Source: Porodaedalea pini (lineage: Eukaryota > Basidiomycota > Agaricomycetes > Hymenochaetales > Hymenochaetaceae). From it: a stretch of 64,000 nucleotides of DNA. Shown here one piece after another: positions 26,946 through 62,821 of this stretch (position 1 is its first letter; each line of letters begins with the position of its first letter). A program made the position numbers and the translations under genes. The stretch is from NCBI GenBank assembly GCA_002794775.1, contig NBAY01000074.1, positions 145,703 to 209,702 of the forward strand, given 5' to 3'. Under the pieces are notes generated by a model. It was not told where the DNA came from and made no database searches. It saw nothing but the letters and a program-made list of their open reading frames with translations.

Positions 26946-28872
26946 TGTAGAGCCATGCTGGTCATCCCATCACCGCCGATTGCTCCAGAAGCACTCGAGA
27001 ACTGGTTCTGATGTGTACCAATCAGTACCAGACTGAATCCGATCGGTCCGGTTTTGAATCAGAACCCCGCAATTGCATCAGCAACACATTCTGAGACCTC
27101 CGAATGCATGACGGAACGTACCGGAGATCTTATCTGAATGATTTGGGATGCAGTCACATGGAGCATACAGCCAAGATGCATACCAGACTGCTGTCCGACA
27201 ATGGGGACCACGTACCGATTGGACGATCTGAGTTCTGGTGGAGCACCGGTATGGTCGGACGCGATGTGGATGTTTTTCTTCATTATGATTTATGTTTTTC
27301 CTATGTTCTTCTGATTTCTATGCTCTCTATGCATGCCTCTAGGACCTATGACTTTTCCTTTCGACGTCTCTAGGTTTCAACTGATATGCACATTATGCCT
27401 GTATGGAAATTATTAACTGTAGATAAATCTTTGGACTTAGTATAAATATGCACCCCATGTCGTAGGTAGAGGATAAGTCAGTTCTACTGCATAGTCTCCC
27501 TCAGATAGGGTAACTTGAGTGTGACCTGTCTTAGTTCTCGTAAAACCCATAGTCGTTCCATCTTCGTCTTAGCATCTTGTCTCTCAAAACTGTCTCTCGT
27601 CTCTTACTCCGTAACTCAAACCTCGTCGCTCATCATGATCACATTGTACCAGTGTTGATTACCTGCACGTACCGACTCCGTACCGGTGAAAGGTGACTGT
27701 ACGGGTCTACTGGCAGACTCGGACCTGGTTGAGTTCGGCCACTGGGGGTTCACTCTAATGTGTCTGATGGAGGGGATAGTGTCAGGAAGTGTGGGGAAGT
27801 GTAATAGAATACTCGGGGCTAGGTGTCAACTCGAGGACATGAGTACAAAGGACGACCGGCAAAACGTGCCTAAATGCGGTCGGAGAACAAAGAGCAACTA
27901 CGATCTTGACAACCCGGGCTCGGAAACTTGCCAGTGAAGACAGGAATCGATACTATTCATCAAGACAATTCTGAATCTGAAAAGACCTCGAGACGCGATG
28001 CAGAATTGACGGAGATATAGCAGTTGCACTGGTTGCGGCTGGCGGAACTCCCGGAACCAAAAGCTATTTTCGTAGCTCTACGACGCAGGCTCGGAATCGT
28101 GCAAGAAAAGACAGTGTTCGAAAGCGATTTTCGACGAGATTAAGAATCTGAAGAGAGCTCTGGAAACGGATAAGAACTGAGGGCGATATAGCGAAAGCAA
28201 GATTTGGCCGAAAACGGGACTCGAGATGGAACGGACGGAACGGACGGAACGACACTGAACGGCGACGGAGACGAGAACTAAAGACTGGGACTGACTCAGG
28301 GGAACTAAACTTGTATTTTTGAGACATTTACATGAGTGTTTAAATAACCATCAGAGGGTTGAGCCTCTGAGCGGCGTACAAAGGACACAAAGACAGACCA
28401 GAGGCTCTAGCCAAACAACACCAAATAGCCGGAACTCGGAGCCGTAACTCGAGAACATGAGTAATTAAGCTTCGGGAGGCTCGGAACAATACCAGATGTG
28501 ACCCAAAACGGACTTCGGTGGCTCACCGGTGCAGAACCAAGCTGTATGCGTTGAGTTAATCCAGCCAAACACTGAAACTGTCCTGAAATGCATCGGGGAT
28601 ACTTGTAAGACTGTCCTGAGTCGAGTCGAACCTAATAGAGCCGATTCCAAGGCCAGCGGCATCGGGATCTCCACACCGGTCAAGTACAGAGCCAACAGGA
28701 GTACCTGACCTTAGCACTCAATATCGACGCGTACTGGCACGTACCGAAGTGTACCGACGCGTACCGGTACATTGAGTGATCTCACCGCAGTCAACCCCTA
28801 ACCTCCCAGAACAATGCGATCATGTCCCCAAAAGGACCGCTGATCCCAGACACCCCTAGGTCAGGATCTACA
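26946..28872 (+). repeat. A2 5' LTR, split by an E2 solo LTR
   Basis: Parts 26946-27686 and 28680-28872 together make 934 bp. TATAAATA lies near 27440. GTAC-rich 10-bp units follow near 28725-28772. Confidence 0.93.
27687..28675 (+). repeat. Solo LTR of family E2 (copy iii)
   Basis: 989 bp, TGAAAGGTGA to CTCCACA, with perfect 4-bp TSDs CCGG (27683-27686 and 28676-28679). It is more diverged than copies i and ii. Confidence 0.92.
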
Positions 28873-28899
28873 AGTGGAGCCCACCACGAGGGGGGTTAA
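28873..28899 (+). other. A2 primer-binding site (tRNA type)
   Basis: Two bases after the LTR comes TGGAGCCCACCACGAGG. It begins with TGG, the complement of a tRNA CCA end. The same bases follow the LTR in A1, A3 and G. I cannot name the tRNA. No 11-mer matching the LTR was found, unlike B, C and D. Confidence 0.65.
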
Positions 28900-28931
28900 A
28901 CGTGTCGTGATCCTCATGTCCTCCGCGTTCG

Positions 28932-31291
28932 TTGTGTGGGACATCTCAGCAGACTATTGAACCCCCTCATCCATATCGAACCACTAATGCTTGGCAGTTT
29001 AGATGCCATATTGAAGAGCGTGCTACGGATTCAGATTCTGAGTCCATAGAGCATTACCTTGATTTGGACTTAGAACAACTTAACACGTCATTTGACTCCG
29101 GAGCGCAGTCTCCCTTCTCATTAATCAGCTCGTCCGCAGTTCCGTTGACAGTCCCCTCAGCCCCGTCGACTAGCATGTCACCACTAACCAAGCTCGAGAG
29201 CAACAACCCAGATGATACCGCTCAGCTCGTCTTACTGGATCCTAGTTTGTCCGTACCGGGACAGACGTCTTCGCCCGTTGGTACGTCGTCAGTTCCGTCA
29301 AACCCAGTTAACACACAGGCTACACAGCCCCGGACATCGACCATAGTAGCGCCGGTGCAGCCAGTACCTCCAGTTAGAATCATGTCAAACCGTCCTCCAC
29401 GTCGCAGAGCTAGAGACGCTCCCTTCTTCGGTGGACATAACCCGTTAGACCTTCCTCGGTACTTCGAGGATATCGAATATATTGCGACTGACTGCAACTT
29501 AGACAACGTGGCGAAGATCTGGTACACGAAGTATTATGCTTCTAGTTCTGTAGCTGAGCTGTGGGATACCGCCGATGGTGTCGGTATGGGAGCGAACAAT
29601 TGGACGAAAGCGAAGGAGGCGATTATAGTGTTTTACCCAGCTTTGGCGCCTGGTGTGTGCTTCACCCGGGAAGACCTCGATAGGCTCATCGAGGGTTGGA
29701 GGAGTAAAGGAATACAGTCAAGGGAGGATTTCGGAGAATACAAGAGAGAGTTCATGGTGAGGTCGAAGTATTTGGAGCGCAATTCGATCATTTCAGCAGA
29801 GGAAGCGGCATGCGCGTTCGTCCGAGCCTTTACGAGCAAACTGAAGGATAGGTTGCAGCAACACCTAGAGATGAAGGAGCCCGACCCGTCCCTGGGCAAA
29901 CCTTATATGATCAATTTGGTGGTAAAGCACATGGACTACATCTTGGCCGGTACAGTTTTCGACGACGTACCAACGACTCGAGCGCCCGACCCGACGAATC
30001 AGTCAAAGGTAAAGTCGGAGGAAGTAGATATTGGTACGGTGTGGGAAGCGGTCAAGAACATTCAGGTTCAGGTGCAGTCACTCGGGCGAAGACCACCGCC
30101 AGCAACAACGTCCCAGAGGAGTCCCGGGTGTGCATTCTGTGGTGACACGAGCCACTACATTAGGTTGTGCCTGAAGGTGCTAGAGTATATCCAGGCAGGG
30201 AAGTGTGTGAGGGATGCGAATGGAAAGGTGACGCTACCAAACGGAGGGTTCGTACCGAGCACGGCGGTGGGTAATAATTTGATGGAGAAGATAGATTCGC
30301 TGCGTCAGGAGATCAGTATGGTCTCAGTTAACCTCATAGAGGTGGTGACATCGACAACAACGGGTACCGAGGTGTCGCAAGGCCCAGCAATGATGGCCGA
30401 GATTGTGGAAGAAGTATCAGATGAGGAGTTGGAGGTGGCGCAGTACAAAACATTGTTGAATGAAGCAAAGAAGCGAGCATCGGTGGCAAAGAAAGCCAAG
30501 TTCGATGGAGTCGAGATACCGGTACGACCGAAACCTGGTCCAGCGAACGTACTGACGACCTCGAATGCGAAATCGAGCGTATCAAAACCAGCAGGTAACC
30601 TGAACATTCCCCAGGAGAGCAGATCGACAACGAATTTGGGCGGAAACCAGCCACAGTTCCAGTACGTCGCTCCAATCGAGGATCTGGTGACGTTTAGAAG
30701 GTATTGTCGAGGACGTTAGACTCAGCGGTAACGGTGACACAGCAGGAACTCCTCGCTCTGTCTTCAGATATGAGGCAGCAGATGAAGGAGTTGACAACAG
30801 TGAAGCGGTACGTGGTCGGTAACGTCAATCTCGTCAAGTCGGACCAGGAAGGGAGCGAAGTTGCGGGGTACCGAGCGGTACCGGAGTCATTGGCTCCAGT
30901 TCTCTTGGAGTCCGGACCGGTGGCACACAATGTGCTTCCCATCTGCATAATTAAGGTATTGATTGAGGATGCCGTCAAAGCAGAAGCCATACTCAATCAA
31001 GGGGCGGTGGTATGCATCATTCGGGAAGACATGTGGGAGAAGTTAGGAATTCATTTGGATCCGGATCACACGATGACGCTCGAAGCCGTGGATGCAGGGA
31101 AGTCATCGACATTGGGAAGGATTCGAGATGCCAGATTCAGGATAGCGGGTGTGGATTTGAAGTTGCAGGTTCAAGTGGTTTCGGTGGCGCCATTTGAGGT
31201 ATTGCTGGGACAACCGTTTTTTGCTCTTACCGAATGCAAAACAAAGGATTTCTTGTCGGGCAATCAGCATATAACCATCACAGATCCCTGA
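28932..31291 (+). pseudogene. gag-pro: A2 Gag-protease, one frameshift
   Basis: Frame 28932-30719 (first codon here a TTG; the ancestral start is upstream near the primer site) then frame 30704-31291. A one-base loss near 30694, seen against A1 and A3, shifts the frame. Domains in order: acidic Ser-rich lead; capsid-like part (FFGGHNPLDLPRYFEDIEYI, SREDFGEYKREFMVRSKYLERNS); CCHC region CAFCGDTSHYIRLC; Pro/Lys linker; protease-like domain with AILNQGAVVCIIREDMWEKLG and PFEVLLGQPFFALTEC. The stop TGA at 31289 corresponds to CAA in A1. Pol overlaps in the -1 frame. Confidence 0.87.
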
Positions 31292-34200
31292 GATCGCAAT
31301 TGCAGGAGCAAGGTGTCGACTGGTATCCAGGTGTTCTGGTGTGCTCTGGAATCAGGTTTTCACAAGTCGAGGAACTGACACATTGGTGCCGGCGAGACGA
31401 GTGGAAACCAACGGTATGGAAGACATGCTGTGGAGTCGATCCGCCAGTACGTGTACCGAACTCGTGTACAGATGTTTTATCTTTGCATTTTAATGACCCT
31501 GATTATTTATCTCGTCGTCCAACCCCTTCTCAGACCAAAATTAATTCTCAATTTGTTCAACCCATTTACAGTTTTCAACAATTGTCCTCTAATGTTTTAA
31601 ATCAATCCGATTCGACTATTTCCCGTTACGTTTCCCCGAGTTATACCTTTAATACCCCAACTCCGTTTATTTATTCGCAGAGATTGAAATTTCTTTTATC
31701 TCCTTGTACCATTGCTTTGGATGCTTCTTTGGACACTTTTGGTTCGGTGGTGTTGGATTCGGCAGAGGATGAAGGAAGTGTTTTGGCGTACAAGCAGGTG
31801 GCGCAGAAGGTCCATCCCATTCCAGGAGTATTACCGGAGGAGTTTCATATAGTTCGAAGGCGACATCCTGACCTGTTGGCGGACATGCCAAAGTTGCCAA
31901 CAAAACTGGTACCATTCGTACCAATGGGAAAGTTTACGCAGGAAAGGCTGAACGCAATGGATTTGGATCCCGGCAGATTTCTGTGGGACGAAGAGAAGAA
32001 GTTGGTGGTAAATCTGATCATGTTGCAGGAAGGAGCATTTGCATGGTCGGAGACGGAGAGAGGAACCTTGGATCCAACGTATTTCGATTCTGTACGCATA
32101 CCAATGGTGGTGCACATACCATGGGTGCGGAAGAACATACTGATCCCCCCTGGGATACTCAAAAAGACACTAAACATACTCAGGGAGAAGATCGCCACCG
32201 GAGTTATTGAACCATCGAACTCGTCGTACCGCTCGAGGTGGTTTTGTGTGGTGAAGAAAGACGGAGCATCCTTACGGTTCATTATTGACTTACAGGATCT
32301 GAACGGGGTGACCATTCGAGATTCGGCCATACCGCCGGACATCGAGACGCTAGTAGATGTGTGCAGCGGGCACACGTGTTACATGGTACTTGATCTCACT
32401 GTTGCTTTTGACCAGTGGATGCTCGATGAATGGTCCCGAGACTTAACGACGTTCCAGACCCCGCTCAGTACGTTTTGACTGAAGGTGTTACCGATGGGAT
32501 ACACGAATTTGCTGCAGATTCTCCATGGAGACATCACATTTATTCTCAGTGACGAGATCCCTAAGGTGGCACAGCCGTTCGCAGACGATGTGATTACGCA
32601 AGGAGGGTTTACACAGTACAAGTGTACCGACAGAGGGTTCGAAACGATTCCTGAGAACCTGGGCATCTGCTGGTTCGTCTACGAACACTTGTGCGACATA
32701 AACCGAGTGCTGCAGAGGATGAGGAAAGTGGGTGGTACATTTTCCGGGAAGAAATTCCAGGCGTGTACTGATTTGGCGATATTTTTGGGGAATAAACTCA
32801 CATACCGAGGACGCAAACTGGACAATTCAAAGGTTCAGAAAGTGTGGGATTGGCCCCCATGTCGAACAATGACCGAGGTGAAGGGATTTCTTGGTATGGT
32901 TGGTGTGTTGAGGGTATTTATTAAGGATTTCACGAAGAAAGCTCGACCATTGACCTGACTTACGTGTAAAAACAACATATTTGATTGGGGACCGGAAGAG
33001 CAGGATTTGATGGACACATTGAAGGACGCCGTTATCGACTGCCTGGCGCTGTGTGCAATTGACTATGGGTCGGACAGAGCGGTTATCTTAGTGGTGGATT
33101 CGTTGATCATAGGAGTAGGGTGGATGTTAGGCCAGGATCACCCGGACGGTAGGAGAAGGATTAATCGGTTCGGGTCGATCAACTGGAACTCGGTACAGGC
33201 AACGTACTCCCAGCCAGAGATCAAGTTATTCGGGTTGTTTAGGGTGTTGAGGGCGGTGAGGTTGTTTATTTATGGAGTTAAGCTCCTGGTGGTCGAGATG
33301 GACACAGCGTACGTCAAAGGGATGATTAACAATCCGGATCTACAGCCAAACACGACGATAAACCGGTGGATCACAGGAATTCTCCTTTTCGACTTCGAGC
33401 TTCGCCATGTACCGGCCGCGGAATTCACATGTACCGATGGACTGTTGAGGTGGCAAGCCACGCCAGAGGACCCACAGGAGGAAGACGACTATGAAGAGTG
33501 GATTGATGCAGCATATGCATTTTTGTATGGAGCAGTGTTGAGTACTGACATCGAAGAAGGGTCTGGTACAGCCACAGATCCTCAGGGGCAGCAGTTCCCG
33601 GCCTCGGATTTGGTGAAGTCGCAAGATAAGTGATTAGAGTTGGTTTGGTACCTCCTTGAACACGGAAGGAAGCCCTTGGAGATCGATGAGAAGCGCTTCC
33701 CCTCGTTTGTCCGGTACGCCTCCGGATTCTTCGTGCAAGCGGGACGACTTTGGTGAAAGACCCGATGAGAGCATCCCCAGTTGGTCGTTGAGCCGGAACG
33801 CCGGTGGTCGCTTGTTCAGCAGGCTCACAACGATCTCGGACACAAGGGGGTGTACTCGGTATGCACTCGATTGCTGGATCGGTTCTGGTGGCCATCAATT
33901 TTGGAAGACGTCAAATACTTTGTGCGTACATGTCATATCTGTCAGGTGCGCCAGACTACGAAAGTGTCGATACCACCATCGGTACTGGACGTACCAACGT
34001 TGTTCGCCCGGATCCACATCGACATGAAGCACATGCCCGCTTCAGGAGGCTTTCACTACATCGTACATGCACGGTGCTCCTTGTCCAGTTACCCGGAGTT
34101 CCGACTGTTGTGAAAGCAGACTGGTCACATGATTGGGCAGTTCATTTTTCAGGAATTACTGTGTCGGTACGGCGTGTGTCCTGAACTCATTACCGACAAT

Positions 34201-34983
34201 GGTACTCCATTTATCGCTGCGCTTGATTGGTTGCGGGATCGGTACCACATTTCGCACATCAAGATCTCGGCGTATAATTCTCAGGCCAATGGGATCGTCA
34301 AACGACGGCATTATGATGTCCAGGAAGCCTTGATCAAGGCAGCTGACAGGAACACTTCCAAGTGGCATGAGCACGCTTACTCGGTTTTCTGGGCTGAGCA
34401 CATAACAATCCAGAAATTGACCGGTATGTTGCCGTACTACATGGTTCATGGAGTCGAGCCGGTACTTCTGTTCGATCTCGCCGAGGCCACTTATCTTACT
34501 CCGCCGTTGGATTCCCCGATGTGTACTGAGGAACTGATAGCGACCCAGGCGCGCCAGTTACAGAAGCGTCCGGTGGACCTCGATAGGATTGCGCAGTTGG
34601 TTTGAGATGCTCGACACAAGTATGCTCGACAGTTCGCCGAAGTCCATAAGCACGTCATCAAGGACTACAATTTCCAGCCCGGTCGACTCGTACTTGTATG
34701 GAACACCCAGATCGAAAAGGAGTTGGACCGAAAGACGAAGGCCCGGTACTTAGGACCGTACGTCGTTGTCCGTAGGACACGTTCCGGAGTGTATATCATC
34801 TCGGAACTCGATGGATCGGTTTCCTGGATTCAGGTTGCAGCTTTTCGTCTCATTCCTTACTTTCCCCATTCTGACATTTCTGTTCCCTTTGACAAAATCC
34901 TTCGACAGGATGACAATGAACATAGCATGATGAAGGAAGATCTGGTAGAAGAAGACGGCTCTGAGTTGGACTCTGATACCTAG
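31234..34983 (+). pseudogene. pol: A2 Pol, one frame with seven TGA stops
   Basis: A single frame without frameshift, about 1250 codons. Stops, all TGA: 32476, 32956, 33631, 33754, 33766, 34111, 34603. Order: pre-RT region; RT (KKDGASLRFIIDLQDLNG, LPMGYTN, FADDV at 32578-32592); RNase H (NWNSVQATYSQPEIKLFGL, EMDTAYVKGMINN); integrase (HNDLGHKGVYSV zinc His pair, CHICQ, Asp at 34021 and 34195, and Lys at 34300 where Glu is expected); GPY-type module YLGPYVVVRRTRSGVY; acidic tail. No chromodomain. At four stops A3 keeps CGA. The E-to-K change (GAA to AAA) would itself inactivate integrase. Start of pol uncertain. Confidence 0.92.
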
Positions 34984-35291
34984 TCACGAATTCTGATTAT
35001 GTTTGCCATCCAAGGTACCGGTACGCGTACCGACACGTACCGACGCCTCTTTATTTTATTATCTTTTAATCAATTATGATCCATTTATGTTTTGACCATG
35101 GAACCGTTTTAAATTCTTTCATACGGAACACTTTCTCGATTATCGAAACATTAACTATATGGCATATCTTTGATTTCCCTTCTGGTACATTAGTGAAATC
35201 ACAAATGGACACTTAAGGACGATCTTTCTTTTTCTTTTTCTTTTTTCGTCCACAGGACCAAGTCGTACCAACACGTACCAACACGTACCGA
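34984..35291. promoter_or_regulatory. A2 gap between convergent pol and antisense gene, with GTAC arrays
   Basis: Tail-to-tail gap of 308 bp. At 35013-35045 GTAC occurs at 35015, 35021, 35027 and 35037. At 35263-35293 it occurs at 35265, 35275 and 35285, exactly 10 bp apart (CGTACCAACA units). Between them is AT-rich sequence and a pyrimidine run (35224-35248). A3 keeps mirror arrays at 51264-51296 and 50905-50925. A shared terminator or binding-site region is plausible. No terminator can be shown. Confidence 0.5.
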
Positions 35292-37548
35292 CTAGTCCTC
35301 CTCCTCCCTAGTGACCCACTTCCCCTTCTCGAGCGCCACAAGGCATGCGTGGATTGAGGCCGCTTTGGCCGCCTGACGAGTTGCCTCCACAGCAAGACGA
35401 TGTGAGCTACACTCAAGCTCGCAGACGTCATGCACGAGCTCCACGACGACGTGGTCGAACTTGTCCTCAGAGTCGTGCTCCGAGACGAGCTTGCGCGGGT
35501 CCTTGTAGGCGCCAGCGAACCGGCTTGGCCCAGTGACAGGCGGCGAGGCAACGCGCCCCCTCTGTTGTTGCTTCTGCTGCCGCAGTATGCGTGCGGCAGT
35601 GGGCCTTGGTATGCGAGGCGGTGGGGACAGCGTGTCCACCACAATCGGAGAGGCCAGCGCAGGCAGTGCAGATGACACGGACGGCTGCTGTTGCTGCTGC
35701 TGCTGCTGCCGTGGTGCCTTGGGCACGGCGTGCGGTACACCTTCGTCGCAGGTGGCGCGTTTCTGCTTTCCACCCGACTTTCCACCCTGGACCTCCTTCG
35801 CACGTCCCTGGGTCACCAGCGAGCATCCCGTCTGCCAGACGACCGTGCAGAGGAAGCAAGCCCTACCGGGCTGCCCCTTGCACACTCTCCCCCGACGCGT
35901 GCAGTTCACGCACGTCTCCTTGAGAGGGACCGGCAGTGGCCCCGCCCACCGTAGGCGACCAGTCGCCAGGTTAACCAGTTTGACTCCATCGAACATGGTG
36001 ACTGTGGGACCCAACGTACCATCAGTACGTCCCTTGTCTGCGTGGTGGTATGACAGGCCACTACTCTCAGCCTCCATCGGAACCGGATCGGGCTCCGCAG
36101 GGGTGAAACGCTCCCCCTCTTCTTCAACCCACGGCTCCCAGCATTGCTTCATGCAAGGGCCCCCACGACCTCACTCACGCGCTCGATGCGCACCTCCTCC
36201 ACTCTCCCAATGGCCATGCTCATGCGCCCGTCGCATCACTTCCGCCTTCTTGCGAGCCTCCTCCTGAGCGGCTAACATGGCAGCGAGACCGGCCTCATCT
36301 CACGCCCGCTGCTCGGCTTCGTGCTCCACGGCTGCCTCCATCTCAAAGAATAGGCCCCCAGGCACATTTGCTGGGGGCGGGACACTCATCACTGTGCTCA
36401 GTGCGGATTTTTGCTGCTGCTGTTGCTGCAGCGGCTCTTTGCGTTGTCTGGTACGCGTTGCGTCCTCGTCGTCAGATGCGATTTCGATGGTGGTATGCCA
36501 TCGCCACTTGTCAGCACCCGTCTGCTGTTGCTGTTGTGCTGACAGGGCATCACTGGTACACGGTACGCTGGACTCCTCCTCATGCATCACACTCACCTCA
36601 ACTTCGCGCAGACCCGTCTGCTGTTGCTGTTGTGCAGATGCGGTACTGTTGGTATGCAGGACGGCATGCTCCTCCTCCTCGATCTCACGCTCCTTGACTT
36701 CGGGCAGACCAGGTGTTTCGAGACATTCGATGAACACCTCAACTGCTGGTACAGCTGACAGGACCCCGACGAAGCGCGGTTGCACCTCGCGCTCCACGGG
36801 GTAGGTGAACTTATACCCATACCTGTCGGGTACGAGTACACGCTCAAGCTCTCCGCCGATGTACGGTATGTCATCTGGCCAGTCCATGACCAGTACGACA
36901 ACTCCCTCACCCCAGTACTTGGTGAGGTTGACTGTCTGGTGGGCGGCAAAATACTGACCATAGAGCCGGTCAGCGGTGGGCTTGTTGAGCCCATCCAGCG
37001 CCCACCGCATCTCCTTCCAGACCCGCACAACCAGGAGGTACATCCGCAGATCAGACACGATTGGGTGGCGCTTCGCCGGCACCACGGAGTCCCAGTAGAA
37101 CTGGTAGTAGCTCTCCAGGGTGTGCTATTTTGAGTCGGTCAGCTCGGTACGTGTGCTTGATTGAGTTTCGAGGACTCACCTTCATGCCATATGCCCACTC
37201 AGCCCACTTCCACCATTCCCCGACCTCGCAACCCCGACTCCCCGCCAGTAACGTCTCCCGCCATTTCACATACCGCCCAAGGCAGCGTCGCACGTACCGG
37301 TCGATGTCGACCAGCCGTTCCTCAATCTTGCGGGTGTCCCATGTGATCTTCTCGCGCTCGACGGTGTCAACATTGTCGATGTACCCTGGTACGTGGGGTG
37401 CCTTGCATGCCAGCCGAGGCAGCACCATGTTGTGGTTGTTGCTGCTGCTGCTGTCGCGGTGTGGAGACGACATGGTTGGAAGAAGCAGGAGAAAAACCCA
37501 TCGGTACGACCACTTTTCCAATGCCCTCTCGCGTGTCTCGACATGCAT
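35292..37548 (-). pseudogene. A2 antisense gene: Zn(II)2Cys6 protein, spliced
   Basis: A gene carried on the strand opposite to gag-pol. Start: the ATG at 37548 (MHVETRERALEKW), conserved in A3; an upstream ATG at 37608 is not. Exon 1 ends at 37180. A 67-bp intron (37179-37113) has GTGAGT, branch-like CTGAC and AG. Exon 2 resumes SYYQFYWDSVVPAKRHP. Then a conserved middle domain (VWKEMRWALDGLNKPTADRLYGQYF, DWPDDIPYIGGELERVLVPD), Gln runs, AAMLAAQEEARKKAEV, a cluster CVNCTRRGRVC - CFLC - C (CX2CX6CX7CX2CX7C, 35823-35912), and a C-terminal helical region ending EEED. Two TGA stops (36300 and about 36175) also occur in A3, so they predate both copies or mark unseen introns. DNA binding is inferred from the cluster only. 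Confidence 0.82.
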
Positions 37549-37590
37549 GATCAGTGTGATCTTCTTGCGTGTATCAGAAGAAGAGAAGGT

Positions 37591-37628
37591 GTGACTGGGG
37601 ACAGTCATGATTTAAATGCCCCGGGAGA
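37591..37628 (-). promoter_or_regulatory. A2 dyad, TTTAAA and purine tract next to the 3' LTR
   Basis: Position 37591-37608 holds the GTGACTG/CAGTCAC dyad with one mismatch (loop 4). TTTAAA follows at 37611-37616, then the reverse of a purine tract up to the LTR. The block is conserved in A3 (48581-48618) and partly in G (40220-40258). It can serve pol as the plus-strand primer and the antisense gene as promoter or leader. Confidence 0.55.
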
Positions 37629-38563
37629 TGTAGAGCTGTGCCGGTTGTCCCATCACCACTGATCGCTCCAGAAGCACTCGAGAACTGGTTCCGACGTGTA
37701 CCAATCAGTACCGGACTGAATCCAATCGGTCCGGTTTCGAATCAGAACCCCGTGATCACATCAGCAACATGTTCCGAGACCTCCGAATGCATGACGGAAC
37801 ATACCAGAGATCTTATCTGGATGATTTGGGACGTGGTCACATGGAGCATACAGCCAAGATGTGTACCGGACTGCTGTCCGACAACAGGGACCATGTACCG
37901 ATTGGACGATCTGAGTTCTGGTGGAGCACCGGTATGGTCGGACACGATGCAGACATTTTTCTTCATTATGATTTATGTTTTTTCCTATGTTCTTCTGATT
38001 TCTATGCACTCTATGCACGACTCTATGACCTATGACTTTTCCTTTCAACTTCTCTATGTTTCAACTGATATGCATGTTATGCCCGTATGGAAATTATTAA
38101 CTGTAGATAGATCTTTGGACTTAGTATAAATATGCACCCCATGTTGTAGGTAGAGGACAAGTCAGTTCTACCGCAGAGTCCCCCTCAGATAGGGTAACTT
38201 GAGTGCGATCCATCTTAGTTCTCATAAAACCCGTAGTTGTTCTGTCCTCGTCTTAGCATCTCATCTCTCGAAACCGTCTCTCATCTCTTACTCCGTAACT
38301 TGAACCTCGTTGCTCGTCGTGATTACATCGTACCGGTGTTGATTACCCGTGCATACTGACTCCGTACCGGTCAAGTACAGAGCCGACAGGAGTACCAGAC
38401 CTTAGCACTCGATATCAACATGTACCAGCACGTACTGAAGTGTACTGACGCGTACTGGTACGTCGAGTGATCTCACCGCAGTCAACCCCTAACCTCCCAG
38501 AGCAACGTGATCATGTCCCCAAAAGGACCGCTGATCCCAGACACCCCTAGGTCAGGATGTACA
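37629..38563 (+). repeat. A2 3' LTR
   Basis: 935 bp, TGTAGAGC to GATGTACA (one change from TCTACA). TATAAATA at 38125-38132. TSD ATGG follows. Confidence 0.94.
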
Positions 38564-38578
38564 ATGGTGGGCTCCACT
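38564..38578 (-). other. A1 primer-binding site
   Basis: The TSD copy ATGG and then the primer site of A1 in reverse (TGGGCTCCACT next to the LTR). Rejoined to 26941 it gives CCACC followed by the ATG of A1 gag, so primer site and gag start overlap or touch. Confidence 0.75.
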
Positions 38579-40219: not shown

Positions 40220-40360
40220 TCTCCTCGGGCATTTTAAACAGTGACTGTCCCTAGTCACTCCATCCTTCTGAATCCTCTCGTGTTTGTGGGATAAGGCATT
40301 GTATGTTGGCCTCGTGTGGTCCGCACCCTCTCTCTCACCCTCATCCATCACAACATCAAA
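40220..40360 (+). promoter_or_regulatory. G antisense-gene promoter region with dyad
   Basis: After the LTR comes a CTCGGGCATTTTAAACA stretch and then GTGACT/AGTCAC at 40241-40258. The order (GGGCATTT, TTTAAA, dyad) matches A3 and A2. The ATG of the antisense gene lies 103 bases beyond the dyad. The purine-rich complement next to the LTR is the expected plus-strand primer. Confidence 0.5.
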
Positions 40361-42158
40361 ATGTCATTTTACCAGCTTGGCATTTCAGCAGAGCGCTTCC
40401 AGGCGATGGCGCAGCTCAAGCAAGCGGTTCGGGAATGGGAGCGAGGCATCCTCGAGCGGTGGATGGAGTTCCCAATCCAGTCATTGATGCCAGAGGTAGT
40501 ACATGCCTGGGTAGTCAGCTTGGCCGAATTTGACATGAGTATTAACGTTCACCATGAGTGACTCTATCCCTGACGCTTTCGTTTAGCACATGCGGTCTGA
40601 GCTTCATCGCCGTATGACCGAGGTTCATCATCTTGACATGTGGACTCATCTGCCAGAGAGTCGCTGGCAGCAGATGCACGACTACCTGAATGTGGCAAGG
40701 GATCACTACGGGATGCAGGATAATGAGACCATGCACGCCCTGGCTGATGCAGCAATAGCTGCAGAAATGGTGGTGACAGCATGAAATGAACCTGGGAGTA
40801 CGGAGTTGGACCGGGAGTTGGCTGCATTTGATCAGCATGAACGAGTTCATCAGGCTAGTGAGACTGAGCGGCTTGATGAGCTGATTTGGTTTGGACAGCA
40901 GTCTCTCCCCATATCGTTGATGCGGCGCAGCATGTCTGCCTAACCAACAGCGCCTGATCTTGGGTCTCCTGGCAGAAGTGATCTGGCTGGTTCCACTTGG
41001 ACAAGAAACACACAACAGGTGGAACTGGCAGAATGGGCACAACGAGCAGAACAGATGGAATGACTGCAACAAGCATGACAGATGAGATCTGGTCCTGATG
41101 AAACTGATCTACCAATCGAGGACGATCAGAGTGATGCATCTTGTACTTCTTCGATGCGGGCATGGGTGAAAAAGGAGTTGGCAACTTGTGCTGCTGCCCA
41201 CGCCCATCGTCATCCAGTTATTCCTCCTTGGGCACCAAGCGAAGAGTCAACTTGGATGGTCATCAACAAGAGTCCTGCTAGTCCTCCACCTGGTTGTCGT
41301 GGGGAATCAGATTACGGGGGAAACGGCTCAGACTCAACTGTTCGTGGCTTGTGGGGTCAATCCATGAGTGCTGCTTTGGGCGACTACAGCAACAGCAGCA
41401 GTAACAAGGGTCAGGTTGACGATGGTGAAGATGATGAGGACAAAGACAAGGATGTTGACGATGATGCCGAAGGAAGCAGCGATGAAGGAAGCGACGACGA
41501 GGAGGCCGAGGAAGACAAGGACAACAGCAACAGCAACAACATCAATTCTGCTGGTTGTAATCCATGCCGGATGCAAGGTATAGAGTGCACTGGGACTCCT
41601 GGGAAGGTGTGCACAAATTGTCGGAAGCTTCAGATTAGGTGCAAGCTGTTGACGCATGGCTGGGCAATGAACTGTGTCATGCATGAGTGGGTTGCGCAGG
41701 CTCCGCCTCCTTGATCACAGTCAGCTGCTGGGTCATCTTCGAGACCTGCTACGAGCGTGGCACCAAGTACTCCAGTGAGACTGCCTCCTGGAGTGTCGAC
41801 GAGGGCTCCTGCGAGAGCATCAATGAGAGCGTCGACAAGGCCATCAACAGGTCCAGTGACAGCTGGGCCTAGTCATCTGGCTTGTCCTAGTGTTGGGGTC
41901 AGCTCATTTGATGACAGGGTTGAGGAACTGTCTGTTCACTCGTCAGAGGCGGAGTTGGATTGGGAGTTGTCTGTCCTGGGTCAGGACGCTCGCATGCTGG
42001 AACACACTGCTTCAGAGCTGGAGTGGCAGGCGGTGTTGCTGCAAGATAGAGCAGCCACCATGCAGTCTAATGTCGTGTCGATGCAGCGGGCTCAGGAGTC
42101 TAGATGGGGTCAGGAAGAAGGCTTGGGGAAAGGAAAGGGGAAGGGAAAAGTGAGGTAG
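40361..42158 (+). pseudogene. G antisense gene: Zn(II)2Cys6 protein
   Basis: Opposite to gag-pol. Exon 1 starts MSFYQLGISAERFQAM at 40361. The frame then changes phase and runs from 40587 to 42158. An intron ending at TTTAG 40586 fits, with donor either GTAGTC 40511 or GTTCAC 40547; both keep the frame. The long frame has stops at 40782 (TGA), 40941 (TAA), 41061, 41076 and 41712 (TGA). After a helical part (RSELHRRMTEVHHLDMW) come a strongly acidic stretch (41415-41520), the cluster CNPCRMQGIEC - CTNC - C (CX2CX6CX7CX2CX6C, 41556-41642), a Pro/Ser/Thr linker and a helical C-terminus (DRVEELSVHSSEAELDWEL) ending in Gly-Lys repeats. Layout parallels family A. Function unknown; regulator is inferred. 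Confidence 0.8.
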
Positions 42159-42528: not shown

Positions 42529-45500
42529 CTAGGCATCAGAGTCGACAGACTCGGAATCAACGTCTGAGATGTCATTCTGGTCCTCGTCTTGCTCTTGGGC
42601 TTCGTTCATCATTTTGAGCTCTTCCTCGGAGTCTTCTATGAGTTTGGTAACTGGAACTGAAAGATTAGAATGGGGGAAGTAGGGAATAAGTTGAAACACA
42701 GCAATTCTAAGGTGGGAAACTGCCCCATTGAGTTCCACCATGATATATGATCCTCCCTCTGTTTTTCGAACAACCACGTAAGGGCCAAGGTACTGAGGTT
42801 TCATCTTTTGATTGAGTTCCATTTTTGTTTGTGAGTTCCTGAGAAGAACGAGTCGTCCTGGTTGGAAGTCGTAGTCTTTAATAAGATGTCGGTCCGCCTC
42901 CTCAAACTGTCTTGCATATGCGTGCCTGGCATCACTGACCTTCTTGGTGATAGCTTCTAAATCCTTGGGGTGTTTTTGAAGCTGGTGAGCTCGGATGGAG
43001 ATGAGTTCAGTAGTAGAGAGCAGGGACTCGATTGGGGGTACGAGATATGTAGCTTCAGAGATATCAAAGGGGAGCAGCAGTTCTACTCCATGGACCATGA
43101 AGTACAGCAACAGTCCTGTAGCTCATAGGATAGTGATTCGTTTGGCCCAGAATACTGAGTGAGCATGTTCGTGCCAACGCTTCTCATTTCCTTCTGTGGC
43201 TTTCATGAGAGCTTCCTGAACGTCAAAGTGTTTTCATTCGATTAGCCCATTAGCACGTGAGTTGTAAGCTGAAATATGGATGTGATTGATGTGATAGCAA
43301 TCCTTCAGCCAATCCAGCACAGCGATGAATGGCTTTCCATTGTTGGTAATGAGTTCTGGGCAAGCTCCAAAGTGGCAGAGTATATCCTTGAATATGAACT
43401 GGCCGATTGTTTTGCCAGTTTCAGAGCGGAGGAGATGGAACTCGGGGTATCCTGAAAGTGAGCATCGTGCATGGACAATGTAGCGATAACCTCCTGCCTT
43501 TGGCATGACTTTTGTGTTGATGTGCACCTTCAAGAATAGGGGAGAAATGGATGGGACTGTTGGCAGAATAAGAACTTGCTTTGTCTGCCTGATCTGGCAT
43601 TCGTGGCACATCTTAACGTAGTGCTTGACGTCGTGTCCAAGGGAAGGCCACCAGAATCGATCGAGGAGTCTGGCTTGTACCAAATATACTCCCTTATGTC
43701 TGAGGTCGTTGTGGGTGGCCTTGACTAGTGTCCAACGATGTTCTGGTTCAATGACAACCTGGTGCCGCTCGTTCCATGCTTTCCACCACAGCTTTCCAGC
43801 TCGGACAAAGAATCCCATTGCGTACCTGACTAGTGCAGGGATGTCCTTCTTGGGGATCAACGAAATTAGTAGTGGGTCTTCTAAGAAGTGTTTTACGTCA
43901 TCAAGATGATGATCCTTGGCACGCACCGAGTCGGAGGCCGGGAACAATTCAGGATTGCCTGTTCTGGGCATTCTGTTCATTGTGTTCATTGCATTTGATC
44001 TGTTTGTTGCATAGGTGGAACCAATGGAATAGGCTTGACCTAAGATAAACATGTATGCTTCATTGATCCATGCCTTGTAGTCGTCCTCCTCTTGCGGATT
44101 GGTTGGTGCAGCTTGCCTATGAGATAATCCGACCATGCCGGTGAACTCCAAAGCTGGTATGTGTCGTAAGATGAACGAGAACAAGAGAATGCTGGTGATC
44201 CACCTATTGATGGTAGCGTTAGGTTGTAAATCAGGGTTGTTGATCATCCCTTTGATGTATGCTGCATCCATTTCAATGATGAGCTTGCGAACTCCAATGA
44301 GAAAGAGACGGTTAGCTTGCAGGGCTTGGAATAGACCAAATAACTCGATTTTTGGCTGGGAATACGTAGCTTGGACCGAGTTCCAGTTGATGGACCCAAA
44401 TTGGTTGATACATCGATGGCTGTCAGCATGCTCTTGCCCAAGCATCCAGCCGACTCTGATGATGGATGAGTCGACAGCAAGTACGACCTCGAGATCTGAC
44501 TGGTAGTCGATAGCACAGAGTGCCGGGCACTTTGTAACTGCTTCCTTGAGAGCATCCATGGTGTCCTGTTCCTCAATTCCCCAGTTGAAAATTATGTTCT
44601 TCTTCGTCAGGCGAATGAGCAGGTGAGCCATCTTGGCGAAGTCCTTGATAAAGACTCGCAAGACTCCTGCTGTGCCAAGAAATCCCTTGACCTCGGTGAC
44701 TGTGCAACACAACGGCCAGTCACAGACCTTCTGAATCTTAGAGTCATCTGGTTCTCGACCCTGGTAAGTGCACTTGTGACCAACAATAATGCCATATGGG
44801 GTGCATATATGTAGCTTTTTTGCTGAGAAGGTTTCTCCAACAACTTTGACTCATTGAAGGATTCGGTTGATGTCCTGGAGATGCTCCCAGATGAAGTGTC
44901 GAATCCCTGGGTTCTTGGGGATCATTTCGTATGATCCATTGGGGAGTTCATACCACATCTTTGGTCCTCTGGCCATAACATCATCAGTGTAGGGGGTCAT
45001 GACTTCCAGGATCTTGTCTTGCAGAATGAACGTGAGGTCATTGTGAAGAATTTGAAGCGAATTTGTGTACCCCATAGGGAGTACAGTAAGACAAAACATT
45101 CCTAGGGGTGTTTGGAAAGTAGTCAGGTCCTGGGAGCTTTCGTGTAAGGTTTGCTGGTCAAAGGCGATGAAGAGATCCAGTTCGGTGTAGCAGGCACAGC
45201 CACCAAATTGCTTGGCCAGCATGTCGATGTTCAGGGGCACAGCTGCATTGCATATCATAATTCTATTGAGATCTTGCAGATCATGGATGAAGTGGAGCGA
45301 GACTCCATCCTTCTTCATGACCAAAAACATCCATGATTGGTAAGATGAGTTCGAGGGCTCGTAGACTCCGGTGTCAATCTTCTCACGTAAAAGCTTGATC
45401 ATTGCTTCTCGAATTCCTGGCAGAATGGGAATGTTCCTGTGGACCCACAGAATGTGTGGAACTGTCGGAATGCGTACTGGGTTGAACCAACGTGGGTCCA

Positions 45501-46020
45501 ATGCTCCTCGATCAGTTTCTACCCATGCTAGTGCACCTTCTTGCAACATGATTAAGTTGATGACTAGTTTTCGTTCCTCTGGCCAAAGAAATTCGCAGGG
45601 GTCGATGTCGAAAGTGTCAGCTCATTCCTGTGTAAACTTGCTGGTTGGTGTAAAAGTGAAAGGTTTGGTAGGGAGTACTGGCATCCCTTCTAGCAGGCTG
45701 GGGTGCTTGTGTCGCACAATCCTGAATTCCTCAGGGAGCGTTCCAGCGATGGGACGAACCTTATTGGCAACTTTCTTATAAGCCAGAACTGCGGGATCGG
45801 TGCCATCTGGGGTTTCGAGGACACACGAGTCATACTGAGCATTGTTGATGTCAAGGGATAAGTTATCTGGTGAAAAGAAAAGGTGGTGATGGTGTTGTTC
45901 ATAAATAGAGACCAGAATCATATAGTCTAAGATCGAAAATACTGAATGTGAAGTTTTGTGAGTGCATATAGCAAGCTGTTTGTCATCTCTCTGATGCTGG
46001 GACATCAGTTCCTCAACCAC
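42529..46020 (-). pseudogene. pol: G Pol, broken
   Basis: Minus strand. Pre-RT region (LAYKKVANKVRPIAGTLPEEFRIV); RT with DGVSLHFIHDLQDLNR, LPMGYTNSLQILH and YTDDV near 45000; connection VKGFLGTAGVLRVFIKDF; RNase H (NWNSVQATYSQPKIELFGL, EMDAAYIKGMINNPDLQPN); integrase with CHECQ; YLGPYVVVRKTEGGSYIM module; acidic end. Both catalytic Asp of integrase are Asn (VHINTK and ITNNGK, GAC to AAC), while the Glu remains in GLIE, followed by a TGA. Stops also separate 45622, 44851, 43234 and 42529 segments. No chromodomain. Dead copy, but enough remains to assign it to the family-A lineage. Confidence 0.88.
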
Positions 46021-47652
46021 TGAAAACCCGACTGCTTATTGAAGCGAGTGATGGTACAGACTCCGGTTGCGACCTTGCATTTTCGCCAGCATTCAGATAG
46101 ATCGGTGAGTGTGATATGCTGGTCTCCTGAGAGGAAGTCCTTCATTTTGCACTCAGTGATGGCGAAGAATGGTTGACCAAGTAGGGCCTTGAATGGAGCA
46201 TTTTGAACTACCTGAGCTTGGAGCGAAACGTCGATGCCAGCAACAGATACTTTGACATTCTGGATCATCCCCAGTGTAGAGGAACGACCTGTATTGGCAG
46301 ACTCAAGAGTCATTGACTGGTCAGCTCATAGATGGATACCTAATTTCTCCCATACATCTTTGTGAATGAGGCAAATGACAGCACCTTGGTCGAGAATACA
46401 TTCGACTTCCAATGCGTTCGCAAAAATTGCCTTAACTGTCCGTAGCGGCAGACATTCTTTGGCAGCTGGTCCTACATCATGATCTGGGCATGCGTTGTGT
46501 GCGACGAGGCCGTTGGTGGACCAGGATGAGCCAGGATGGCCGGTTCCAGGCATTCCGTGTGTTGCACTCATTGCGCTCGTTCCACCTGCCCCGACCAGAT
46601 GGATGTCTCCTACTGTCAAATGCTTTGTCATGGTAAGGTCTTTCATCTGTTTTCGTACATCGGGGGCCAGAGCTAACAGTTCTCATTGCGAGATGGTGAT
46701 GTTCAAGTCGAGAGAGCGAGTGAGGACTGTCTGCACGACCGCAGCGTCTTTGACTGGGGACACATAGCAGTACTGCAGCTGTGTGGATGATGTCTTGGGT
46801 GTGTCAGTGGGCTGCGGCTTTTCTGGGTGGGTCGAGGCCTCTGGCTTCACTGCAGGGACTGGAGTCATCTTGGGTTCTGTTCTAGGGGGCGCAGTTGGTT
46901 TAGGGGGGACTTGAAGTCCGTCGAACTTAGCTTTTCTTGCCATGCTGGTCCTCTTCCTTGCTTCTCCTAACAACACCTCGAGTCTCTCTACCTTGTATTT
47001 GTCTTCTGGGATCTCCTCAACTGTTGCTGAGGCCACGAGAATGGGTTCAGGGAATGTAGTTTCGGAGTCGGCGACTTCGACTAAGTTGACTGTATGTGCA
47101 ACTTGATCCTTTCCCAGGAACCCATCGATATGTTCCATGATCGTTCCTCCAGGAACTGTGCTCAGGACGAAGCTCCCATTGGCCAGGGTAACTCGCCCTT
47201 CTGTGTTGCATGTGCACTTGCCATTCTGGATATATTCAAGGACTTTTGGGCAAGATCGAATGAAATGGCTTAGCTCTCCACAGAACGTGCACCCTGGGTT
47301 CCATGGCTGTGAAGGTACAGGTGCTGCTGGTGACGTTGAGACTGGTGCATTGCTTCTAGTTGTACCTGATCCTCGACCCATGGTGTCGAGCTGGACTTGG
47401 AAGCTCTTGAGTGTTTCCATGACTGTGCTGAGATCGACCTCCTCCTTTTTGATGGTAGTTGAGCTGCTGGAAGTTGAGGTATGTGGCGCTTGAGTCATTG
47501 AGCCACTGAATGATGCTCCTCTGAGGATGAAGTCAGTGTGCTGGATGATAGTTTCGATTTTGTAAGGGTTGCCTTCTTTGTGATCAGACTCCTTGATCTC
47601 TAAGCACCAAAGAAGCACTGTACATAAGTCGCCAGTGATTCCTCTCAGGAAT
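46005..47652 (-). pseudogene. gag-pro: G Gag-protease, 3' part
   Basis: From the A3 insertion on: IKKEEVDLSTVMETLKSFQVQLD, CCHC knuckle CTFCGELSHFIRSC, linker with KAKFDGLQVPPKPTAPP, then protease-like VECILDQGAVICLIHKDVWEKLG and PFKALLGQPFFAITEC. The catalytic position is DQG, shared with family A. Stops lie between 46647 and 46682 and at about 46320. The other half of gag is at 58377-59385. Confidence 0.85.
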
Positions 47653-47656
47653 GTGT

Positions 47657-48580
47657 TGTAGATCCTGACTTAGGGGTGTCTGGGATCAGCGGTCCTTTTG
47701 GGGACATGATCGCATTGTTCTGGGAGGTTAGGGGTTGACTGTGGTGAGATCACTCAACGTACCAGTACACGTCGGTATGCTTCGGTACGCGTCGATATTG
47801 AGAACTAAGATCGGGAACTCCTGCCGGGTCTGTACTTGACCGGTACGGAGTCGGTACGCGCAGGTAATCAACACTGGTACAATGTGATCACGACGAGCGA
47901 CGAGGTTCGAGTTACGGAGTAAGAGACGAGAGACAGTTTCGAGAGACGAGATGCTAAGATGAAGACGGAATGACTACGGGTTTTACGAGAACTAAGACAG
48001 GTCACACTCAAGTTACCCTATCTGAGGGAGACTATGCAGTAGAACTGACTTGTCCTCTACCTATGACATGGGGTGCATATTTATACTAAGTCCAAAGATT
48101 TATCTACAGTTAATAATTTCCATACAGGCATAATGTGCATATCAGTTGAAACCTAGAGACGTCAAAAGGAAAAGTCATAGGTCATAGAGGCGCACATAGA
48201 GAGCATAGAAATCAGAAGAACATAGGAAAAACATAAATCATAATGAAGAAAAACATCCGCATCGCGTCTGACCATACCGGTGCTCCACCAGAACTCAGAT
48301 CGTCCAATTGGTACATGGTCCCCACCGTTGGACAGCAGTCCGGTATGCATCTTGGCTGTATGCTCCATGTGACCACGTCCCTAATTGTCCAGATAAGATC
48401 TCCGGTACATTCCGATATGCATTTGGAGGTCTTGGAACGTGTTGCTGATGCAATCGCAGGGTTCTGATTCGAAACCGGACCGATTGGATTCAGTCCGGTA
48501 CTGATTGGTATGCATCGGGACCAGTTCTCGAGTGCTTCTGGAGTGATTGGCAGTGATGGAACGACCGGCACGGCTCTACA
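47657..48580 (-). repeat. A3 3' LTR
   Basis: 924 bp, plus-strand TGTAGATCC to GGCTCTACA. It has one fewer 10-bp GTAC unit than the 5' LTR near 47760-47800. Confidence 0.93.
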
Positions 48581-48618
48581 TCTCCCGGGGCATTTAAATC
48601 GTGACTGTCCCCAGTCAC
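48581..48618 (+). promoter_or_regulatory. A3 TTTAAA and perfect dyad before the antisense gene
   Basis: TCTCCCGGGGCATTTAAAT, then GTGACTG-TCCC-CAGTCAC at 48601-48618, a perfect 7-bp dyad with a 4-base loop. ATG of the antisense gene follows at 48661. G has the same layout with a 6-bp dyad. Confidence 0.55.
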
Positions 48619-48660
48619 ACCTTCTCTTCTTCTGATACGCGTGAGAAGACCACACTGATC

Positions 48661-50895: not shown

Positions 50896-51326
50896 TCGTT
50901 ACACATTGGTACGTGTCGGTACGACTTGGTCCTGCAGGAAGGAGAAAAAAAAAAAAAAAGAAAAAGAAAAAATAATACAATCGTGGTAATTTATATGTAT
51001 ATATTTTTGAATTTGGATTTTTCTTTGTTTTCTTTAAGTTTTTTGGTGTGATAAACGAAAGAACAAAAAGAAAAAGAAAAAGAAAAATCATCCTTAAGTG
51101 TCTGTTTGTGATTTTACTAATGCACCATAAGGGAAATTGAAGAAAGACCATATAATTAATAATTTGTGAAGCGAAAAAAGTGTTCCATACAAAGGAAGTT
51201 AGACGGTTCCATGATTAAAACATAAACGGATCATAATTGATTAAAAGATAATAAAATAAAGAGGCGTCGGTACGTGTCGGTACGCGTACCGGTACCTTGG
51301 ATGGCAAACATAATCAGAATTCGTGA
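50896..51326. promoter_or_regulatory. A3 gap between antisense gene and pol, with GTAC arrays
   Basis: GTAC at 50909 and 50919 just after the antisense gene, and at 51270, 51280, 51286 and 51292 next to the pol end, mirroring A2. A-rich runs at 50944-50970 and 51060-51085. No gene seen. Confidence 0.5.
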
Positions 51327-55011: not shown

Positions 55012-55019
55012 TTGCGATC

Positions 55020-60511: not shown

Positions 60512-60515
60512 GCGC

Positions 60516-62820: not shown

Positions 62821-62821
62821 A

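What the first reader, a model, noticed from the sequence alone, without database searches (positions are those of the whole stretch)
35292..37548. Retrotransposon family A carries an antisense Zn(II)2Cys6 gene between pol and the 3' LTR
The cluster CX2CX6CX7CX2CX7C at 35823-35912 fits the fungal zinc-binuclear consensus, and the same gene is present in A3 (cluster 50296-50385). The differences between the copies keep the frame and all six cysteines. A Gypsy element that brings its own fungal-type DNA-binding protein, transcribed against gag-pol from beside the 3' LTR, is not a layout I know to be described. It could regulate the LTRs, silence the sense genes or target integration.
Basis: partly seen in the sequence, partly recalled or inferred. 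Interest (0 to 1): 0.92.

Follow-up and report, generated by a model that had tools for sequence, protein, structure and literature searches.

The report
Retrotransposons carrying antisense zinc-cluster regulator
Several families of a fungal jumping gene each carry, backwards next to their 3' end, a gene for a probable DNA-binding protein, and two of the families are studded with a short DNA word of the kind such proteins bind, which suggests that the element recognises and controls its own DNA.

Summary
The Cys6 cluster is exactly at 35823-35912 and 50296-50385. The window copies are broken, but eight fetched copies in this 53-Mb fungal genome have an open second exon of 609-617 codons behind a short first exon and a 55-nt intron. 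In 15 of 20 fetched A loci the series integrase - antisense gene - 3' LTR is complete. A homologous gene sits in the same slot in family B, and look-alikes in three of four examined elements of a more distant group C, so it is not freshly captured host DNA. The cluster region is constrained (transversion omega about 0.25 in A and C). The layout is known (plant Retand, Grande, RIRE2; Botrytis Boty brtn); a zinc-cluster protein there was not found in print. The cluster scores below Pfam's Zn_clus cut-off, and its halves look swapped in B, C1 and C2, not in A. New: A elements carry CGGTAC at 7.0/kb against 0.15/kb outside, also inside pol beyond codon choice (8 of 10 loci); B favours CGGAAC more weakly; C shows no word. 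Best reading: a self-recognising regulator, perhaps anti-silencing like Arabidopsis VANC. Expression and binding are not shown.

The parts
26946..28873 (+). A1 5' LTR, interrupted by other sequence at about 27691-28668
28932..30719 (+). A1 gag-like ORF with CCHC-type knuckle (knuckle read by eye)
   Evidence: no Pfam hit
30704..31291 (+). A1 aspartic protease
   Evidence: Pfam PF13650 over its cut-off, PF13975 just below
31234..34982 (+). A1 decayed pol: RT, RNase H, integrase
   Evidence: RNase H by Pfam in the window, integrase H2C2 by Pfam in the relative L016; RT of A has no Pfam hit
35292..37124 (-). exon 2 of antisense gene, A1 copy, with in-frame stops at 36302-36300 and 36173-36171
35823..35912 (-). 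six-cysteine zinc-cluster-like motif of A1
35322..35462 (-). predicted C-terminal helix (residues 231-277 of the 286-aa ORF), likely coiled coil
   Evidence: AlphaFold2, block pLDDT 67-90 there, rest poor
37125..37179 (-). 55-nt intron, GTGAGT...CTGAC...TAG, phase 0
   Evidence: not confirmed by RNA
37180..37473 (-). exon 1 of antisense gene, A1 copy
37591..37608 (-). near-palindrome RTGACT-N6-AGTCAY upstream of the antisense ATG
37611..37616 (-). TTTAAA, candidate TATA-like box of the antisense gene, between palindrome and 3' LTR
37629..38564 (+). A1 3' LTR (TGTAGA...TGTACA)
47656..48580 (-). A3 3' LTR
48736..49029 (+). exon 1 of antisense gene, A3 copy
49085..50895 (+). exon 2 of antisense gene, A3 copy, frame broken near 49648 and between about 49902 and 50056
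50296..50385 (+). six-cysteine motif of A3
40241..40258 (+). family B: GTGACT-N6-AGTCAC just after TTTTAAA, same arrangement as in A
40360..42158 (+). family B antisense gene, decayed copy (exon 1 from 40360; cluster about 41559-41645)
42529..47618 (-). family B pol and gag, sense strand of that element
28669..38564 (.). A1 body with 42 CGGTAC/GTACCG sites (4.24/kb)

Best explanation
A clade of Ty3/Gypsy retrotransposons in this fungus (an agaricomycete by its named pol relatives) encodes an accessory regulator on the antisense strand, from a promoter just inside the 3' LTR. The protein has a Cys6 zinc-cluster-like domain (its two halves in swapped order in B, C1 and C2), then in A and B a low-complexity linker and a C-terminal helix, probably a coiled coil for dimerisation. 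It most likely enters the nucleus and binds a family-specific CGG-containing word (CGGTAC in A, CGGAAC in B) repeated along the element, so marking its own family's DNA and changing its chromatin or transcription. Because decay of the two window copies is almost all transition, much of it at CpG (a methylation-like signature), counteracting silencing is the likeliest benefit, as for Arabidopsis VANC proteins. Shown: position, strand, linkage, open frames, intron signals, constraint, word enrichment. Inferred: expression, zinc binding, DNA binding, self-recognition, anti-silencing.
For: Order and strand: of 141 gene pieces, 126 have an integrase hit upstream within 10 kb, 125 of them on the opposite strand. 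Eight copies with an uninterrupted 609-617-codon exon 2. Canonical splice signals in A and B. A-B homology over cluster and tail, E = 1e-17 in a single comparison. Constraint: transversion omega 0.25 [0.13-0.54] in A cluster plus tail (20 copies), 0.27 [0.15-0.47] in the C gene (21 copies); non-mirror wrong frames have point values above 1. CGGTAC: 510 in 72.6 kb inside against 4 in 27.4 kb outside in ten A loci, rank 1 of all hexamers, and in the longest pol ORF of 8 of 10 loci 0 of 1000 synonymous shuffles reach the observed count. Nine further loci give 0.65-7.59/kb against 0.13/kb in 23.7 kb of other window sequence. B: CGGAAC is the top hexamer of the longest B stretch, L039, 26 against 8.0, and in its pol 8 against 3.5 with 12 of 1000 shuffles reaching. 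LTR pairs differ almost only by transitions: 86 of 94 and 52 of 53.
Against: No group-C stretch tested shows such a word although most C elements have the gene. In B the word is weak: only third and fourth in L033 and L034, and 13 of its 26 sites in L039 lie in 2.7 kb after pol. The word is as dense in A coding sequence as outside it, whereas VANC motifs lie in non-coding DNA. In 2 of 10 A loci the pol test is not met as strictly (L014 243 of 1000, L022 14 of 1000), and the decayed A1 gag and RT parts show little (15 and 151 of 1000). Family A, where the word is strongest, is the family whose cluster looks least like Zn_clus and whose halves are not clearly swapped. Constraint is weaker in the first two thirds of exon 2 (tv omega 0.66 [0.40-1.17]), exon 1 shows no codon-position bias, omega over all changes is 0.88, and the mirror sense frame shows part of the signal (0.36 and 0.40). 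No expression or binding data.
Confidence: 0.45

Rival explanations
1. Antisense regulator of another kind: the protein acts only at the LTR and the antisense promoter (transcription factor or self-repressor), and the CGGTAC word is a lineage quirk unrelated to it.
For: TTTAAA plus the GTGACT-N6-AGTCAC palindrome is conserved next to the LTR in A and B, a natural autoregulatory site; group C has the gene without a word.
Against: It leaves the extreme enrichment in A (510 against 4), including inside pol against synonymous shuffles, unexplained; the palindrome has no CGG triplet.
Confidence: 0.25
2. The antisense transcript, not the protein, matters: it makes dsRNA or occludes sense transcription and limits copy number.
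For: Antisense transcription from beside the LTR would run toward pol; discussed for plant antisense ORFs in PMC7264820.
Against: A pure RNA function does not need an open frame, six fixed Cys or omega about 0.25, nor intron signals on the antisense strand.
Confidence: 0.12
3. The protein is a replication accessory factor (nuclear import of the pre-integration complex, nucleic-acid chaperone, or targeting of integration) that uses the cluster to bind element cDNA.
For: Present with most integrase hits examined; CGGTAC all along the A element, coding parts included, would suit binding of cDNA; the comparison with retroviral accessory factors and Tf1 is made in PMC7264820.
Against: Antisense transcription gives no obvious way to package the protein; target sites were not examined.
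Confidence: 0.15
4. Captured host zinc-cluster gene hitch-hiking without function.
For: The genome has 28 Zn_clus matches; the window copies are broken; omega over all changes is 0.88.
Against: Homologous gene in A and B and like genes in three C elements, each in the same slot; only 15 of 141 pieces lack an integrase hit upstream; constraint at non-CpG changes.
Confidence: 0.03

Closest known systems
Plant Retand-lineage antisense ORF with TRP28 domain (PMC11963269, passages read) and Grande gene23 / RIRE2 / PvRetro13 (PMC7264820, parts 1 and 2 of 3 read)
   Different: No TRP28 or SMC match in the proteins scanned here; a Cys6 cluster and C-terminal helix instead; fungal host; a self-word found here
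Boty brtn antisense gene of Botrytis cinerea (Zhao 2011, seen only as cited in PMC7264820, PMC8365987, PMC4227169)
   Same: Fungal Gypsy element with an additional antisense gene
   Different: No sequence of brtn was available, so homology was not tested; nothing I saw calls it a zinc-cluster protein
VANC anti-silencing proteins of Arabidopsis VANDAL transposons (PMC5735166 passages, PMC10398659 outline with abstract)
   Same: Element-encoded protein; family-specific short motif enriched in the element
   Different: VANDALs are DNA transposons (recalled); VANC motifs lie in non-coding DNA and binding was shown; here LTR elements, word also in coding DNA, binding unknown
Fungal Zn2Cys6 transcription factors (Gal4/Ppr1 type; Pfam PF00172)
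   Same: Six Cys as two CX2CX6-7C halves, a C-terminal helix, and CGG-type words (CGG half-sites and coiled coils recalled, not from a call)
   Different: Below the Pfam cut-off; in B and C2 the basic residues are in the second half, in A in the first; in A and B the cluster lies in the later part of exon 2

Membership tests
Ty3/Gypsy LTR retrotransposon | LTRs, gag, protease-RT-RNaseH-integrase order | tested here: met
   (RT only by homology and, in B, a sub-threshold RVT_1 match of 26.2 against 29.6 bits)
Antisense additional ORF between pol and 3' LTR (aORF-3R) | Antisense ORF in that slot in most copies of the family | tested here: met
   31 of 35 A, 19 of 20 B, 49 of 60 C-group integrase hits; full series with LTR in 15 of 20 fetched A loci
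Zn2Cys6 (PF00172) | Six-Cys spacing CX2CX6CX5-12CX2CX6-9C (recalled consensus) | tested here: met
Zn2Cys6 (PF00172) | Pfam gathering score 21 bits | tested here: not met
   best 13 bits (B window copy), none for A
Zn2Cys6 (PF00172) | Profile similarity to the host's own Zn_clus domains | tested here: inconclusive
   hhalign probability 84 against a profile of 6 of 20 fetched host domains (14 did not fit my pattern); hmmsearch includes B, C1, C2, C3 but not A
Zn2Cys6 (PF00172) | Binds two zinc ions and CGG-type DNA | not testable with these tools
   only word enrichment
Retand TRP28 antisense protein | PF04195 domain | tested here: not met
   not among families at E up to 10
Boty brtn | Sequence homology | not tested
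VANC-like self-recognition (works like, not member) | Family-specific short motif enriched in the element | tested here: met
   A strongly, B weakly, C not
VANC-like self-recognition (works like, not member) | Protein binds the motif and removes silencing | not testable with these tools
   needs binding and methylation data

The most novel reading that the evidence does not exclude
A fungal LTR-retrotransposon clade has evolved its own sequence-specific self-recognition system: a zinc-cluster-like protein made from the antisense strand reads a family-specific CGG-containing barcode written, by selection, along the element, in family A even within its pol codons, and uses it to keep its own family out of silencing. 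Protein and barcode have diverged together between families A (CGGTAC) and B (CGGAAC).
Probability: 0.35. Interest if true: 0.88.

Novelty: new variant of a known kind. Interest (0 to 1): 0.74.

Why it matters
Antisense genes beside the 3' LTR have been known in plants since the 1990s (works of 1997 and 1999 cited in PMC7264820) without an agreed function. Here such a gene has a recognisable DNA-binding architecture and a candidate target word, so one in-vitro binding experiment with two families (A and B, with different predicted words) would test the function directly. It would also warn that some zinc-cluster genes counted as fungal transcription-factor expansions may be retrotransposon genes (inference), and it gives a clear case of a whole element, coding sequence included, shaped by a short DNA word.

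Tried and rejected
Captured host gene: rejected (linkage, several families, constraint). Chance Cys pattern: rejected (0 of 20,000 shuffles for each of five proteins). Gag knuckle: different spacing, other strand (by eye). Cross-species test: protein searches with A exon 2 and the C gene found no relative, although the same database holds 576 pol relatives, of which the four with an organism name among the 120 listed are basidiomycetes; one search scored only the 7,990 candidates sharing most words, probably drawn by poly-Q. A viral-contig scan with pol gave none. No DNA around the relatives' pol could be read. Solved-structure search with B: nothing relevant. AlphaFold2 on three window sequences: mean pLDDT 46.5, only the C-terminal helix good; no fold search was run with it. 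A CGGTAC-rich, perhaps non-autonomous stretch (C2:913-918 kb) could not be read. Print searches for a zinc-cluster antisense gene in a retrotransposon; none seen in their listings; this library lacks most subscription papers. Rows dropped before the linkage count: 11 of 36 rows, 11 of 70, 29 of 33 (weak cross-family hits), 19 of 150 listed rows; the converse count used only pol hits of 400 bases or more. A synonymous-shuffle figure for L024 used a wrong frame (19 stops) and is set aside; one search repeats it in an open frame for ten loci.

Full report
Setting. The window lies in a 53.3-Mb, 201-contig genome held as G000. A pol search lists 576 relatives; the four with an organism name among the 120 shown are Candolleomyces (two), Hypsizygus and Sanghuangporus, which I recall to be agaricomycetes. 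The window is packed with Gypsy elements. A1 runs 26946-38564 (+), A3 about 47656-58372 (-), and a second family, B, lies between them on the minus strand. LTRs begin TGTAGA and end CTACA or a decayed form. Pfam finds protease and RNase H in A1, RNase H and integrase H2C2 in the A relative L016, and the same plus a sub-threshold RVT_1 in the B relative L039.

The gene. Fetched copies show the full model: ATG (ATGTCGTC...), a first exon of about 97 codons, a 55-nt intron GTGAGT...CTGAC...TAG in phase 0, and a second exon open for 609-617 codons in eight copies (L014, L015, L016, L017, L018, L021, L022, L024). 'Open' refers to exon 2; the exon-1 region of some of these has TGA codons in the span searched, which also covers intron and leader. 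Over the exon-2 or cluster ORF the gene frame is free of stops in L016, L014, L037 and L033, while each sense frame holds 4 to 12. An intron that works only on the antisense strand cannot be spliced out of the sense genomic RNA, so it survives retrotransposition (inference from retrotransposon biology). The window copies are decayed: A1 has two in-frame stops in exon 2, A3 has breaks near 49648 and between about 49902 and 50056.

Linkage. Of 20 fetched 10-kb A loci, 15 show integrase, all three gene parts and the 3' LTR in series; L025, L028, L029, L031 and L032 are truncated or rearranged; several carry inserts. Genome-wide, 44 of 53 A pieces, 22 of 25 B pieces and 60 of 63 C pieces have an integrase hit upstream within 10 kb; the strand is opposite in 125 of these 126. 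Of the four A exceptions, C70 and C92 have the exon-1 part beside them. In group C, L035, L037 and L038 carry an antisense Cys6 ORF and L036 does not, so the trait has a boundary. Of the 15 unlinked pieces only one locus was read: L031 on C1, which adjoins an LTR.

Relationship. A and B proteins align over cluster and tail at E = 1e-17. The C proteins share the cluster and a charged or helical tail, and C2 and C3, like B, end in a KGKGK-type tail; their homology to A and B rests on a five-sequence alignment of low identity and on weak cross-hits between C2 and C3 (best 4.4e-7). Pfam Zn_clus is sub-threshold wherever it appears; sub-threshold HD_4 (0.0065, A) and TFIIA (0.00071, B) matches are below their cut-offs and probably low-complexity. 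A profile from six host Zn_clus domains (of 20 fetched; the others did not fit my pattern) finds B, C1, C2 and C3 above inclusion, A not (0.042). That profile meets the two halves of B in reversed order. Mean half scores support a swap in B (second half 41.5 against host first halves, 24.4 against host second halves), C1 and C2; C3 is undecided and A is not clear. Basic residues in first/second half are 0/4 in B, 0/3 in C2, 0/2 in C3, 4/4 in C1 and 3/1 in A, so A keeps the order I recall for canonical domains.

Constraint. Six Cys are kept in 22 of 22 A copies, one of which has a stop inside the cluster. Counting pairwise differences against an expectation that respects base change and CpG context, exon 2 of the eight copies gives omega 0.88 for all changes and 0.52 for transversions; pol gives 0.56 and 0.14 in seven of them. 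CpG transitions dominate and look like decay after insertion, hence the transversion and non-CpG figures: A cluster plus tail 0.25 [0.13-0.54] and 0.45 [0.34-0.62] in 20 copies; C gene 0.27 [0.15-0.47] and 0.37 [0.29-0.45] in 21 copies. In those two sets the other frames have point values above 1, some with intervals reaching below 1, except the mirror frame that shares wobble positions (0.36 and 0.40), which has stops in the copies checked. Exon 2 before the cluster is less constrained (0.66 [0.40-1.17]). Exon 1 has no codon-position bias, with omega 0.37 on few transversions and 1.29 for non-CpG transitions. Pairs are not independent; intervals are codon bootstraps.

Promoter. The palindrome RTGACT-N6-AGTCAY is found in 18 of 20 fetched A loci, not in L029 and L032; in L025 and L028 it stands in a different context, leaving 16 at the LTR edge of the gene, after TTTAAA. 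B has the same with TTTTAAA in L033, L034, L039 and the window copy. A strict pattern finds TTTAAA, palindrome and ATG with 117-123 bases in between in 13 of 20 A loci.

The word. Looking for possible target sites, I found CGGTAC to be the most enriched hexamer in A1: 42 against 4.0 from dinucleotides; with a stricter second-order expectation it is still 65 against 13.6 in L016 and 29 against 7.5 in L014. In ten A loci it occurs 510 times in 72.6 kb inside and 4 times in 27.4 kb outside; the next-ranked hexamers are mostly ones that overlap it, and among CGGNNN words it has 116 against 23 for the next in two loci. It stands in pol, in the gene (14 against 3.9, 0 of 1000 shuffles, L016), between pol and gene, and in the LTR, on both strands about equally (261 and 249). 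In the longest pol ORF of each of ten loci, 0 of 1000 synonymous shuffles reach the observed count in eight (for example L023 24 against 3.8, L017 23 against 3.1); L022 (5 against 1.5, 14 of 1000) and L014 (2 against 0.95, 243 of 1000) are weaker. Decayed A1 shows it less in gag (6 against 2.0, 15 of 1000) and RT (2 against 0.7, 151 of 1000). Nine further loci give 0.65-7.59/kb, A1 and A3 4.24 and 4.01, and 23.7 kb of other window sequence 0.13/kb; A1 is where the word was found, so it is no independent test. Genome-wide, close pairs GTACCG-N2-24-GTACCG number 979 against 227 for the reversed control; only the first 100 places were listed and they are not all in A elements. In B, CGGAAC leads in L039 (26 against 8.0), then CGCAAC (16 against 5.5); it is third and fourth in L033 and L034; the decayed window copy has TGGAAC on top (22 against 5.9); 9-bp arrays of related words occur in L033; in L039 pol it is 8 against 3.5, 12 of 1000. 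Group C shows no such word, nor does L036.

Mechanism. Shown: a linked, constrained, split antisense gene with a zinc-cluster-like domain and a predicted C-terminal helix (residues 231-277, block pLDDT 67-90, the rest unreliable), and a CGG-containing word strongly repeated in A and more weakly in B. Inferred: that the protein reads the word. The nearest working model is VANC of Arabidopsis VANDAL transposons, which binds family-specific motifs and causes loss of methylation in its own family (PMC5735166, passages; PMC10398659, abstract). That the LTR pairs of A1 and A3 differ almost only by transitions (86 of 94, 52 of 53) suggests methylation in this host, a setting in which anti-silencing would pay; transposon-borne TET/JBP enzymes in fungi (PMC12730594, start of abstract in a listing) are a parallel of another kind.

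Known or new. The slot and strand are known: Grande, RIRE2, Retand, PvRetro13 and Boty (PMC7264820, parts 1 and 2 of 3; PMC11963269, passages). Boty brtn was seen only as cited. A zinc-cluster protein in that slot was not seen in the listings. I file it as a new variant of a known kind; the self-word, if bound, would make it a new sort of retrotransposon self-recognition.

Noticed in passing
G000 C1:540594-544926 and C2:913092-917752: CGGTAC-rich stretches with many sites at a 27-bp period and, on C2, an exon-1 piece of the antisense gene nearby; perhaps a non-autonomous A derivative that keeps the word.
   Followed up: partly
G000 C64:151287 and C64:155563, C88:374, C44:322601 and C136:56732: Zn_clus (PF00172) matches with equal scores in open frames of 173-408 codons, so repeated and perhaps also mobile.
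   Followed up: no
L025 2518 and L028 8407: The palindrome GTGACTGTCCCCAGTCAC also occurs in a different sequence context, so another element family may share it.
   Followed up: no
L036 (G000 C8): A Gypsy element (integrase 42% identical to A, open frame of 804 codons) with no antisense Cys6 pattern in the 3.5 kb read; a natural control.
   Followed up: partly
L038 2315-3269: The group C3 element carries four copies of a 34-nt repeat around GTCGTCTCGGGCT in the antisense gene region.
   Followed up: no
window 59500-64000: GGAATTCC is strongly repeated (12 against 0.1) in another repeat.
   Followed up: no
window 26946-28873: The A1 5' LTR is split by about 980 bp of other sequence.
   Followed up: no
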